Part shown: positions 8,199-30,059 of the stretch, piece after piece
How the letters are laid out: every line of letters starts with the position of its first letter
How positions within the stretch are numbered: the stretch's first letter is position 1
Assembly: GCA_030619715.1 (NCBI GenBank)
Contig: JAUXAW010000008.1
Location: 1-33,993, forward strand
Length of the DNA stretch: 33,993 nt
Reading direction: 5' to 3'
Origin: a candidate division WWE3 bacterium
Lineage (GTDB): Bacteria; Patescibacteriota; WWE3; JAUXAW01
The notes under the pieces: generated by a model
Database searches by the model: none
Seen by the model: the letters and a program-made list of their open reading frames with translations, nothing else
Told to the model about the DNA's origin: nothing
Made by a program: the position numbers and the translations under genes

Positions 8199-8227
8199 AT
8201 TATAACACACTCTATCTCATTTGTCAA
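8199..8227 (-). promoter_or_regulatory. Proximal promoter P2
   Basis: TTGACA-17 nt-TATAAT on the minus strand. Confidence 0.85.
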
Positions 8228-8267
8228 AGTGGGCGAAATGAATTTCGCTATTACATTCTATACCTTA

Positions 8268-8296
8268 ATTGTAACATATTATAAGGCAGATGTCAA
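8268..8296 (-). promoter_or_regulatory. Distal promoter P1
   Basis: TTGACA-17 nt-TACAAT on the minus strand; inverted repeat GCGAAAT-GA-ATTTCGC (8233-8248) lies between P1 and P2. Confidence 0.75.
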
Positions 8297-8319
8297 ACAG
8301 GTTTTGGGGTTTGAGAAGT

Positions 8320-8355
8320 GATGTAACTTCCGTACGGCCGTAAGCGAGTTACATC
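8320..8355. repeat. 36-bp imperfect palindrome, copy 1
   Basis: GATGTAACTTCCGTACGGCCGTAAGCGAGTTACATC; related copies at 32715-32750 and 33434-33469. Confidence 0.85.
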
Positions 8356-8387
8356 AATTTGGGTAACAAGCAAGCTTGTCACTACAA

Positions 8388-23541: not shown

Positions 23542-23589
23542 CGGCGGTTTGGGAAACCTTTAAAGTTCAAGGTCTCACACAAACCGCCC
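23542..23589 (-). terminator. Terminator of the 23615 gene, directly upstream of dnaJ
   Basis: GGCGGTTTG...CAAACCGCC then GCTTTTTTG on the minus strand. Confidence 0.7.
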
Positions 23590-23614
23590 TGAGGTAAGAG
23601 TAGCTCACTACTAC

Positions 23615-23905
23615 TTAACCTGGTTCGGCTCTTGCTTCCTCCAGCGCCTCCCATAGTGCTTCGGTGTTAAGTAGAGCCCACTCGTGGCTACGGCAAAAAC
23701 CACGAACATGCCCTGCGCCTTCGTGATCAAGGGACCATTTTGCTGGATACAGTTCTCTCTTGCCCCAATCATGTCTGTGTCCCAGAACTTCGCCAGAGTC
23801 TTTCACCCGAAGGAGAAACCATGACGATGCTTCTTCCTTTTCTCCCTCCTGCACAAAGACTTCCACCTCAGTTCCGGGACCAGGGTGTTCAGTTATGATT
23901 TTCAT
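23615..23905 (-). CDS. Hypothetical orphan protein
   Basis: 96 aa; GGAAAGGAGAAA before ATG. Confidence 0.7.
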   Translation of the reverse strand: MKIITEHPGPGTEVEVFVQEGEKEEASSWFLLRVKDSGEVLGHRHDWGKRELYPAKWSLDHEGAGHVRGFCRSHEWALLNTEALWEALEEARAEPG

Positions 23906-23981
23906 TTTCTCCTTTCCCCCTGATAGTTTTGCCGCCGCTGGCGAAGTTTTGGCCAGGCAGCGATTACCCCATCAACGCATT

Positions 23982-24110
23982 CTACAAATTCATACCGACC
24001 CAGTAAAACACACACAGGCCGGCGAAGAGTATCGTTGCGATGAGGGTCGCGAAGAGCAAGACCTTAATGATGGTCTTCAAACTCTCCCAAAAAATCTTCA
24101 AAGTCTCCAT
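23982..24110 (-). CDS. 42-aa single-TM small protein (absent from ORF track)
   Basis: METLKIFWESLKTIIKVLLFATLIATILFAGLCVFYWVGMNL*; AAAGGAG 9 nt before ATG; follows promoter at 24177-24205. Confidence 0.65.
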   Translation of the reverse strand: METLKIFWESLKTIIKVLLFATLIATILFAGLCVFYWVGMNL

Positions 24111-24176
24111 TACGATCTGCTCCTTTCTTCTAAGGAATCTTATGCGGAAACGCTTTCCGCAAGCCAGATTGAGGAT

Positions 24177-24205
24177 ATTTTACCAAAATTTCTACCTTTT
24201 GTCAA
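24177..24205 (-). promoter_or_regulatory. Promoter for the 42-aa/96-aa pair
   Basis: TTGACA-17 nt-TAAAAT on the minus strand. Confidence 0.75.
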
Positions 24206-24208
24206 ATA

Positions 24209-24232
24209 GGAAATGCTCTGGGGATTTTGGGG
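24209..24232. repeat. Promoter-upstream element, copy A
   Basis: GGAAATGCTCTGGGGATTTTGGGG (plus strand), 5 nt from -35 to AAATGC. Confidence 0.85.
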
Positions 24233-24242
24233 GGAAAGAAAA

Positions 24243-24282
24243 AGGTTCCTGCAAAGACCGAAGTCTTTCGCAAGAACCTTCT
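24243..24282 (-). terminator. Terminator of the 24303-24860 gene
   Basis: AAGGTTC...GAACCTT with extended AAAGAC/GTCTTT stem; minus-strand tail TTTTTCTTTCC. Confidence 0.75.
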
Positions 24283-24302
24283 ACGCTCCGCGGACGGGTC
24301 AC

Positions 24303-24860
24303 TTAACGAACTCTAGCGTGGCATTCTGGTGTAGCCAGCAACCAAAAGCCTGCAAGGACTACCGGGATAGAAGCGAGCACGAACGCCCTCTCGATTCCTG
24401 TAGCCCCAACTACCGCTACCCAAAGAACGGCAAGGATGCAAAGGGCGGTGCCAAGGTAGAACGGCGACACCCAAGCTAACCACTTCCACTGCGCCCGTCG
24501 GGCCCGGTCGGACCAGTTGACTCTGGGTCGCTGTCCTTTGAGCGCCTCGTAAACCACAGTGAGAGTCTCAATCATCACCTGATGGATCGGCTCCCACTCA
24601 AAGGCGGGGTACTTGATGAGGGTAATTTGGCGCTTGGAGATTTGAACCTTCGAAAGACCGAGCTCGTGACATTTCTGCGCCAAGGCCCTAACGAAAGAAG
24701 TCGCCTTCACCTGATCTGCCCACCTCCAACCCTCACGAAGGACTACTTCGACGCTGATCCGTCTTCCGAACCCTCCCACCGCTACATCAAACCTGGTGTG
24801 GTAGTACCGGATATCATCCTCCGGCTGGTCAACCAAAACTACATTTTTTTGGGGTTCCAT
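24303..24860 (-). CDS. Hypothetical membrane protein
   Basis: 185 aa with C-terminal hydrophobic hairpin (WVSPFYLGTALCILAVLWVAVVG...AFVLASIPVVLAGFWLLA); AGAAAGGAGAGAAAGG before ATG. Confidence 0.7.
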   Translation of the reverse strand: MEPQKNVVLVDQPEDDIRYYHTRFDVAVGGFGRRISVEVVLREGWRWADQVKATSFVRALAQKCHELGLSKVQISKRQITLIKYPAFEWEPIHQVMIETLTVVYEALKGQRPRVNWSDRARRAQWKWLAWVSPFYLGTALCILAVLWVAVVGATGIERAFVLASIPVVLAGFWLLATPECHARVR

Positions 24861-24932
24861 CCTTTCTCTCCTTTCTTTCTCTCTTTCTTTCTAGACCCAA
24901 CACGAACACCCGTCCGCTAAAGCTGTATCCCC

Positions 24933-24961
24933 AATCTAACACAAATAGATTTGTTTGTCAA
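24933..24961 (-). promoter_or_regulatory. Promoter of the 24303-24860 gene
   Basis: TTGACA-17 nt-TAGATT. Confidence 0.75.
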
Positions 24962-24964
24962 ATA

Positions 24965-24994
24965 ATAAATACTCTGGGGATTTTGGGGTTGGGG
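24965..24994. repeat. Promoter-upstream element, copy B
   Basis: ATAAATACTCTGGGGATTTTGGGGTTGGGG. Confidence 0.85.
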
Positions 24995-25005
24995 CAAAAC
25001 TGTAG

Positions 25006-25446
25006 CTAATCAGAATCTAGAAAGAAAGTGATCGCTTTCCGTGAATAGAGAGTCAAATCGAAGTCAAGCACTTCTTTTGAATCAACCCACTTATACTCAA
25101 AATGTTCCGCAGAAAGTTTAACCCGACCCGACACCACCCTCGCCTCATAAGTTAATCCCACATGAAGCATTCCCGGGTATTTGTGAGGCACACCATCTTT
25201 GATAGGAGGGTTTATTCCCGTTTCGGAATAAGTTTTGGGAGAAGTAATTTTGACCAACAGGCCAGTCTCCTCAAGAGCCTCTTTCTCGGCTGCACTGCTG
25301 AGGTCCTGGCCGGTTTCGACCTTACCTCCGGGTAACTCCCACTCTCCGGGATTAGACCTTTCCTCTTTCGCTCGGCGAAGCAGTAATATCTTACCGTCTT
25401 TTTTGATAAAGCACCTAACAACAATAAGCACCTTTGGAAAGTCCAT
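25006..25446 (-). CDS. NUDIX hydrolase
   Basis: Nudix box GGKVETGQDLSSAAEKEALEETGL. Confidence 0.88.
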   Translation of the reverse strand: MDFPKVLIVVRCFIKKDGKILLLRRAKEERSNPGEWELPGGKVETGQDLSSAAEKEALEETGLLVKITSPKTYSETGINPPIKDGVPHKYPGMLHVGLTYEARVVSGRVKLSAEHFEYKWVDSKEVLDFDLTLYSRKAITFFLDSD

Positions 25447-25455
25447 ACCATTTAT

Positions 25456-25483
25456 ATTTTAACAGCTAGGAACATTTTTTCAA
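25456..25483 (-). promoter_or_regulatory. NUDIX gene promoter, probably leaderless
   Basis: TTGAAA-16 nt-TAAAAT, 9 nt to ATG. Confidence 0.6.
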
Positions 25484-25486
25484 GCA

Positions 25487-25509
25487 GGAAATACTCTGGG
25501 GATTTTGGG
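25487..25509. repeat. Promoter-upstream element, copy C
   Basis: GGAAATACTCTGGGGATTTTGGG. Confidence 0.85.
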
Positions 25510-25520
25510 CAAAAGAAAAA

Positions 25521-25550
25521 GAGCCTATGGATTGTTCACCCATAGGCCCT
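25521..25550 (-). terminator. Terminator of the 25569-25889 gene
   Basis: GGGCCTATGGGTGAACAATCCATAGGCTC then TTTTTCTTTT on the minus strand. Confidence 0.75.
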
Positions 25551-25568
25551 TCGGCCGACGCAGAAGGT

Positions 25569-25889
25569 TCAGAAGACGAAGAGGTTGAGAACGAGCGTCA
25601 CGATCAGTGGGTAGTACCACCGAAGACTTTCTATCGGCGGGGGGAATAGTAGCAACACCCCACAAAGCACGCACACCCCTATGTTGACGACGGCCACCAT
25701 CGGCTGGTTGATCGTCTCAATCCCAGCGAAGAAGGCGTTTACCGCCAAATAGGCGAGCGGCGTAACCCACTCCTCGATCCCAAACACCACCCCCTTACCT
25801 TTCTTACCTTTGTAAGCGGCAATCGCCGTGAGCACAAGCGCGCACAGCATTACCAACAGCGCCCACCCATTCCCTATGATCTGTTCCAC
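25569..25889 (-). CDS. Small multi-TM hypothetical protein
   Basis: 106 aa, several hydrophobic segments; GTG start after AAGGAGGAGGGAAAAC. Confidence 0.7.
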   Translation of the reverse strand: MEQIIGNGWALLVMLCALVLTAIAAYKGKKGKGVVFGIEEWVTPLAYLAVNAFFAGIETINQPMVAVVNIGVCVLCGVLLLFPPPIESLRWYYPLIVTLVLNLFVF

Positions 25890-25956
25890 GTTTTCCCTCC
25901 TCCTTCTTCAGGTTTTTAAGAAGACTACCAACTAACCCAAATCTCCTTCATCCAAA

Positions 25957-25985
25957 CTATAACACTAATAAATCTTGGGTGTCAA
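25957..25985 (-). promoter_or_regulatory. Promoter of the 25569-25889 gene
   Basis: TTGACA-17 nt-TTATAG. Confidence 0.7.
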
Positions 25986-25996
25986 ATTGAGCGAGC

Positions 25997-26026
25997 GGAA
26001 ATACTCTGGGGATTTTGGGGTTGGGG
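25997..26026. repeat. Promoter-upstream element, copy D
   Basis: GGAAATACTCTGGGGATTTTGGGGTTGGGG. Confidence 0.85.
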
Positions 26027-26065
26027 ATTCATCCACCCAGGCCTATGTGACATAATACAGAAACT

Positions 26066-26791
26066 ATGATACAGAGAACATCTTTATCAAAAATGATTAA
26101 ATCTTTTAAACCAGAGGTTTTTTCTTGGTATATTCCAATTTGCTCCCTCTTAGTTGCAGCGATCCTTATTTTTGGTATCTTAGTTTGGTGCTTTTCGTAC
26201 TCAGACAGACACGCGTGGATCGAGAATTTTATTTCATTCATAACACTTATTTTCGCTATGGTGGTAGGGTATTATGCCTTCGAAGAGTTCAGAATTACTA
26301 GGATAGATAGATATAAAAAAGAGGCAGACGAATATTTAAACGGCCTAAAGTTTGAAGAGGCCAAACGGGTTTTTGAGAGCGCCTACAGCCTAGGAGCTAG
26401 GGATAAGTCAATGCTATTAAACTTCTCTGAGTTATGTTCAACACTTGGAGATTTCGGAAAAGCAAGGAAAATAGCTAAGGAAGCAAATGGCCGAGGCGAT
26501 TCATATAGAGATGAGGTGTGTTATCACTACCTCATTATATTAAGCTACCTTGGTGAGAAGAGGATTGATAAAGCTGGAAATGAAATTAAGTCGCTGTTTG
26601 AGATTTCTAAAGGCAAGCCCGTAATGGATATGCGTTGGAGCTTGAAACAAGTTGAGAAAGAAATGATTCCATCAATGGACGGAAAGGCAAAGAAGATATT
26701 TGGAATAATGAAAGATCTCCTAGAAGGAAATATCTCTCCTGCGGATTTTGAACAACGAATGAGGGGAATAAGTTGGTTGGATTTGATTTAA
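26066..26791 (+). CDS. Two-TM protein with possible TPR-like cytoplasmic domain
   Basis: 241 aa; TMs IPICSLLVAAILIFGILVWCF and FISFITLIFAMVVGYYAF, then helical repeats. Confidence 0.65.
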   Translation: MIQRTSLSKMIKSFKPEVFSWYIPICSLLVAAILIFGILVWCFSYSDRHAWIENFISFITLIFAMVVGYYAFEEFRITRIDRYKKEADEYLNGLKFEEAKRVFESAYSLGARDKSMLLNFSELCSTLGDFGKARKIAKEANGRGDSYRDEVCYHYLIILSYLGEKRIDKAGNEIKSLFEISKGKPVMDMRWSLKQVEKEMIPSMDGKAKKIFGIMKDLLEGNISPADFEQRMRGISWLDLI

Positions 26792-30023: not shown

Positions 30024-30059
30024 TTGGCACAATATACCACAGAGTGCTAAGGTTGTCAA
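30024..30059 (-). promoter_or_regulatory. hrcA promoter with imperfect CIRCE operator
   Basis: TTGACA (30054-30059)-17-TATATT (30031-30036); TTAGCACTC-N9-TTGTGCCAA at 30024-30050 against CIRCE TTAGCACTC-N9-GAGTGCTAA. Confidence 0.75.

What the first reader, a model, noticed from the sequence alone, without database searches (positions are those of the whole stretch)
23542..26066. Island of orphan genes between dnaK and dnaJ sharing a promoter-adjacent element
hrcA-grpE-dnaK is contiguous, but dnaJ is separated from dnaK by about 3.4 kb holding small, mostly membrane or unknown genes. Four minus-strand transcription units (42aa/96aa, 185aa, NUDIX, 106aa) each have CCCC(AACCCC)AAAATCCCCAGAG(T/C)ATTT just upstream of the -35 box. 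In copies A-C the -35 to element gap is exactly 5 nt; in D it is 13 nt. Fixed spacing suggests an activator/UP-type element or a common regulon rather than random repeats. Alternatively the unit is a duplicated mobile promoter cassette.
Basis: partly seen in the sequence, partly recalled or inferred. Interest (0 to 1): 0.8.

Follow-up and report, generated by a model that had tools for sequence, protein, structure and literature searches.

The report
Shared upstream element at four orphan-gene promoters
In one small-genome bacterium, a 3.4 kb block of otherwise unknown genes has been inserted between two heat-shock genes, and its four transcription units each carry the same 18-base sequence just upstream of a strong promoter, which most likely marks a small private set of co-regulated genes.

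Summary
AAAATCCCCAGAGYATTT occurs four times on the minus strand between dnaK and dnaJ, 5, 5, 5 and 13 nt from a strong extended -10 promoter. It occurs nowhere else in the 674 kb genome, in none of 56 related genomes, and in 84,980 other genomes only as chance hits. In most relatives dnaK and dnaJ are nearly adjacent, so the 3.4 kb is a lineage-specific insertion. Its genes are orphans except for one NUDIX hydrolase. Measured against the genome's other promoters, the four share the element but, apart from the pair B/D, little else. They therefore look like four different promoters carrying one conserved site at about -41 to -58 (D at -50 to -67), rather than one promoter copied intact. I favour a binding site of an unidentified regulator (a one-locus regulon), at about 0.45. 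A decayed promoter-module duplication is the strongest rival: the same genome reuses other promoter modules in front of unrelated orphan genes, including eight dispersed copies of TTGACAARACTATGAGTTTGTG. An UP element is unlikely because the core is G+C-rich. An integron-like cassette boundary is not supported by any linked recombinase or attC-like structure. No regulator, transcript or sister species is available to settle it.

The parts
24211..24228 (-). element copy A, AAAATCCCCAGAGCATTT, 5 nt from -35 (about -58 to -41)
24967..24994 (-). element copy B with CCCCAACCCC extension; core 24967-24984; 5 nt from -35
25489..25506 (-). element copy C, 5 nt from -35
25999..26026 (-). element copy D with CCCCAACCCC extension; core 25999-26016; 13 nt from -35
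24177..24205 (-). promoter A: TTGACA-17-TAAAAT, TG before -10
24933..24961 (-). promoter B: TTGACA-17-TAGATT, TG before -10
25456..25483 (-). promoter C: TTGAAA-16-TAAAAT, TG before -10; NUDIX transcript nearly leaderless
25956..25985 (-). promoter D: TTGACA-18-TATAGT, TG before -10
23982..24110 (-). 42-aa ORF, hydrophobic, one membrane-span-like stretch (unit A, first gene)
   Evidence: no family
23615..23905 (-). 96-aa orphan ORF (unit A, second gene)
   Evidence: no family
24303..24860 (-). 185-aa orphan ORF with hydrophobic C-terminal part (unit B)
   Evidence: no relative in 380 genomes of the phylum
25006..25446 (-). NUDIX hydrolase, 146 aa (unit C)
   Evidence: PF00293 E 4.3e-17; PDB 3grn E 7e-15
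25569..25889 (-). 106-aa hydrophobic orphan ORF (unit D)
   Evidence: no relative in 44 other genomes of the class
24238..24282 (-). strong hairpin plus T run (terminator-like) directly before element A
   Evidence: z -3.9
25518..25552 (-). intrinsic terminator directly before element C
   Evidence: z -4.0
23543..23588 (-). terminator-like hairpin ending the island before dnaJ
   Evidence: z -3.9
26066..26791 (+). 241-aa A+T-rich orphan gene (GC 0.38), divergent from unit D, at the dnaK end of the island

Best explanation
The 3.4 kb between dnaK and dnaJ is a lineage-specific insertion of orphan genes arranged as four separately transcribed units. Each unit has a strong sigma-70-type extended -10 promoter. 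The shared AAAATCCCCAGAGYATTT is most likely the binding site of a DNA-binding protein that sits directly upstream of RNA polymerase, at about -41 to -58, and switches the four units together. It would therefore be a small regulon confined to one locus. Shown here: four identical sites, promoter placement, near-constant spacing, uniqueness in the genome, and the insertion relative to kin. Inferred: protein binding, co-regulation, its sign (activation or repression) and the identity of the regulator, none of which is known.
For: Four exact copies against 0.14 expected, and none elsewhere in the genome. Every copy is followed by a strong promoter, 5, 5, 5 or 13 nt away. In A-C the five bases between element and -35 differ (CCTAT, ATTAT, CCTGC) while their number does not. 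Against 903 pairs of other promoters from the same genome, upstream similarity of the four ranks in the top 0.2-0.3% and comes from the element. Downstream similarity from -35 onward is ordinary except B/D. So the element is the conserved unit, with sharp edges. Another promoter family of this genome keeps an identical -35-to-spacer sequence in front of unrelated genes, which is consistent with operator-type sites being common here.
Against: The promoters are near consensus and would not need an activator. Copy D is displaced by 8 nt, about three quarters of a helical turn, which is awkward for strict contact with polymerase. The site has no clear dyad symmetry: the best self-complementary match is 6 of 8 positions. 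No gene of the island encodes a recognisable DNA-binding domain. A regulator with only four neighbouring targets is unusual. There are only four sites, probably not all independent in origin (B and D share 28 nt), and no sister species to show conservation through time.
Confidence: 0.45

Rival explanations
1. Remnant of promoter-module duplication. A terminator-tail/element/promoter segment was copied when new genes were added, and the copies have since diverged. The element has no present regulatory role, or is just the best-kept part.
For: B and D share CCCCAACCCC plus the element and show modest promoter similarity (top 4% of pairs). A and C share the 10-nt terminator tail CTTTTTCTTT before the element (p about 0.03). 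The same genome copies other promoter modules, with their leaders, in front of unrelated orphan genes, including tandem pairs on C9 (1031 bp apart) and C31 (792 bp apart).
Against: Neutral decay should not leave 17 of 18 positions identical in four copies while flanks, -35/-10 spacers and leaders become as different as unrelated promoters.
Confidence: 0.3
2. Recombination or cassette boundary. The element is the end sequence of element-promoter-gene-terminator cassettes exchanged or accumulated at dnaK-dnaJ, like an integron array but with the site at the 5' end.
For: Units B, C and D are separate single-gene units with the element at a fixed end; the island is lineage-specific and its genes are orphans. 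The dnaK-dnaJ gap of relatives G003 and G006 also holds different small ORFs.
Against: No attC-like fold and no dyad. No recombinase was recognised in the island; the two clear tyrosine recombinases of the genome are XerC/XerD-like, lie on other contigs and fall below the integron-integrase cut-off. No copy at the island ends beyond D, no copies elsewhere in the genome or in other genomes beyond chance. One unit (B) lacks an upstream terminator.
Confidence: 0.15
3. Transcription insulator. The C-rich, G-poor sequence between terminator and next promoter is a Rho-loading or roadblock sequence that stops read-through into the next unit.
For: A and C lie directly after hairpin terminators; the genome encodes Rho (PF07497); the element is C-rich on the transcript strand.
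Against: Rho sites do not need an identical 17-mer or a fixed distance to the next -35. Copy D has no same-strand gene directly upstream to insulate against.
Confidence: 0.06

Closest known systems
Single-locus bacterial regulons with operators upstream of -35 (class I/II activator sites)
   Same: identical short site at a nearly constant place upstream of -35 in several neighbouring promoters
   Different: no regulator identified, no dyad or clear direct-repeat symmetry, promoters already near consensus, one copy off by 8 nt
UP element of sigma-70 promoters
   Same: position directly upstream of -35 (about -41 to -58)
   Different: G+C-rich core CCCCAGAG instead of an A+T-rich tract; an exact sequence is kept
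Integron gene-cassette arrays
   Same: short orphan genes in a row, each bounded by a repeated sequence
   Different: no linked integrase, no attC-like folded site, repeat at the 5' side next to a gene's own promoter
CIRCE/HrcA heat-shock operator
   Same: the locus is flanked by hrcA-grpE-dnaK and dnaJ; a CIRCE-like site lies at the hrcA promoter
   Different: the element bears no resemblance to CIRCE, and no CIRCE lies in the island

Membership tests
Regulon with a common operator | shared site at several promoters beyond chance | tested here: met
Regulon with a common operator | site recognised by an identified regulator; co-expression | not testable with these tools
   no DNA-binding protein recognised in the island; no expression data
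Regulon with a common operator | sites conserved in related species | tested here: inconclusive
   no genome of the same family is held; 56 genomes from order to phylum lack the element
UP element | A+T-rich tract at about -40 to -60 | tested here: not met
   core CCCCAGAG
Integron | integron integrase linked to the array | tested here: not met
   only XerC/XerD-like recombinases, on other contigs, below the integron-integrase cut-off
Integron | attC sites with imperfect dyad at cassette ends | tested here: not met
   element has no such symmetry
Mobile promoter cassette | copies at unlinked places in the genome or in other genomes | tested here: not met
Mobile promoter cassette | whole promoter segment shared between copies | tested here: inconclusive
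   only B/D modestly similar beyond the element

The most novel reading that the evidence does not exclude
An integrase-independent cassette system of a small-genome bacterium, in which orphan genes are added as element-promoter-gene-terminator units and the element is both the junction and the control site. It would be part of a genome-wide habit of re-using a few promoter modules for unrelated orphan genes.
Probability: 0.1. Interest if true: 0.75.

Novelty: new member of a known kind. Interest (0 to 1): 0.42.

Why it matters
Small-genome bacteria of this kind are thought to have few regulators, and most of their orphan genes have no context. A site that ties orphan genes together gives a direct handle on which of them act together, and a bait to fish out the regulator. 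The wider pattern, several promoter families each attached to unrelated orphan genes, would bear on how such genomes take up and switch on new genes.

Tried and rejected
Exact 18-mer hits in viral contigs (1) and in 84,980 genomes (38 stretches): nearly all inside long open frames, none with a near-consensus promoter downstream, so chance. Two 3-mismatch hits in the own genome: the C7 one lies within apparent coding sequence without a promoter (by eye), the C33 one differs within the core; both taken as chance. A general C-tract upstream of -35 boxes: 11 of 41 other promoters against about 12% background, weak and post hoc. G-quadruplex on the plus strand: only two or three G-tracts, not canonical. 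Block duplication (D-C copied to B-A) with related genes: the 185-aa and 106-aa proteins are unrelated. Structure prediction of the 185-aa and 96-aa proteins without an alignment: low confidence (pLDDT 51 and 53), not used. Rfam: nothing in the window. No homologue of the orphans tested was found: the 185-aa protein in phages, relatives and viral contigs, the 106-aa protein in the class and viral contigs, the 241-aa protein in viral contigs. Literature: nothing found on this element or this kind of locus.

Full report
OBSERVATION. The element is real and at the stated places. Four copies of AAAATCCCCAGAGYATTT lie on the minus strand between dnaK and dnaJ, where shuffles of the window give 0.14 matches at up to 3 mismatches and never four. 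Sixteen consecutive positions, CCCAAAATCCCCAGAG, and then ATTT after one variable base (C in A, T in the others) are identical in all four. Each copy precedes a strong sigma-70-type promoter with an extended -10. The gaps to -35 are 5, 5, 5 and 13 nt. With a start site taken 7 nt after the -10 box, that places the element at about -58 to -41 in A-C and at -67 to -50 in D.

UNIQUENESS. In the 674 kb genome (91.8% complete, 36 contigs) these are the only copies; two further 3-mismatch hits are taken as chance. Fifty-six relatives, from the same order to the same phylum, have none at up to 1 mismatch of CCCCAAAATCCCCAGAG. In 84,980 species genomes the 21-mer CCCAAAATCCCCAGAGYATTT has no hit. The 18-mer has 38 hit stretches, from widely different bacteria and one archaeon, nearly all inside long open frames and without a near-consensus promoter downstream. 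About 15 would be expected from uniform base composition (own estimate), and several of the extra ones are the same gene in related species. The element is therefore private to this lineage as far as the data go.

THE ISLAND. In relatives dnaK is followed by dnaJ after 5-21 bp (G002, G004, G005, G009, G010, G011) or 68-172 bp (G014, G018, G007). In G003 and G006 the gaps of 360-490 bp hold other small ORFs. In five genomes (G001, G012, G015, G017, G019) the two genes are not adjacent. The 3416 bp here is thus an insertion in this lineage. It holds four minus-strand units and one plus-strand A+T-rich gene of 241 aa (GC 0.38 against about 0.5). Only the NUDIX hydrolase belongs to a known family. 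The 185-aa protein has no relative in 380 genomes of the phylum, and the 106-aa protein none in 44 others of the class. Strong hairpin terminators lie immediately before elements A and C and before dnaJ, none before B.

WHAT IS SHARED. I compared the four promoters with all 903 pairs of the other 43 promoters of the same pattern collected from this genome, a control that shares the promoter consensus. In the 60 nt upstream of -35 the four stand out (top 0.2-0.3%), because of the element. From -35 onward they do not, except B/D (top 4%). B and D also share CCCCAACCCC before the element, and A and C share a terminator tail. The natural reading is that the element itself is under constraint and that at least some copies descend from one another.

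HOW IT MOST LIKELY WORKS. A site kept exact, next to -35, at a nearly fixed distance, at every minus-strand promoter of one locus and nowhere else, behaves like a binding site of a regulator of these units. The sign of the effect is open: the promoters look strong enough to fire unaided, which fits repression or modulation better than strict activation. The 8-nt shift in D argues against an activator that must touch polymerase at one fixed angle. No regulator can be named.

PARALLELS IN THE GENOME. The pattern of the strict extended promoter occurs 45 times against 2 for the reversed control. Among these, one family, TTGACAARACTATGAGTTTGTG, has eight copies at up to 3 mismatches against none for the control. 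They stand in front of ORFs whose predicted proteins are unrelated to each other. Pairs lie 1031 bp apart on C9 and 792 bp apart on C31, and the C9 pair repeats the end of the neighbouring yraN-like gene as well. A second family has a palindrome, two tandem promoters and a conserved leader. Re-use of promoter modules for unrelated orphan genes is therefore a habit of this genome. It is the main reason why the duplication rival keeps 0.3.

VERDICT. Observation confirmed. The regulon reading is plausible but unproven, the UP-element reading unlikely, and the mobile-cassette reading weakly supported. Novelty is modest: a new, unassigned cis-element set of a known general kind. The locus becomes informative once sister genomes or transcripts are available.

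Noticed in passing
G000 contigs C9:16289 and 17320, C27:28134, C31:47400 and 48192, C8:13808, C22:37733, C29:5239 (L119-L126): Eight promoters share TTGACAARACTATGAGTTTGTG, identical through -35 and spacer in five copies, before mutually unrelated predicted proteins. Several also share a leader with GGAGAGAGG and a boxA-like TTCTTTAACAA.
   Followed up: partly
window 8199-8359 (-); also G000 C4:30030-30126 and C33:4094-4190: A palindromic GTGATGTAA..CGTACGG..TTACATCAC element precedes two tandem extended -10 promoters, with a short inverted repeat between them (AGCGAAcTTTAgTTCGC type), and then a GGAGAGAGGC leader that may fold. In the window it lies between secA and a 447-aa gene. No Rfam match.
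   Followed up: partly
window 30024-30050: CIRCE-like operator (3 mismatches) at the hrcA promoter; none upstream of the island units or dnaJ, so dnaJ seems uncoupled from HrcA control.
   Followed up: partly
G003 C2 dnaK-dnaJ gap (L075:1405-1614) and G006 C8 gap (L076:1797-2226): Relatives also carry different small ORFs between dnaK and dnaJ (a 69-aa Cys-rich zinc-ribbon-like ORF; 70- and 61-aa ORFs), so this may be a recurrent insertion spot.
   Followed up: partly
window 26066-26791 (+): A+T-rich (GC 0.38) 241-aa orphan with an N-terminal hydrophobic stretch and a weak TPR-like match, probably a recent acquisition.
   Followed up: partly
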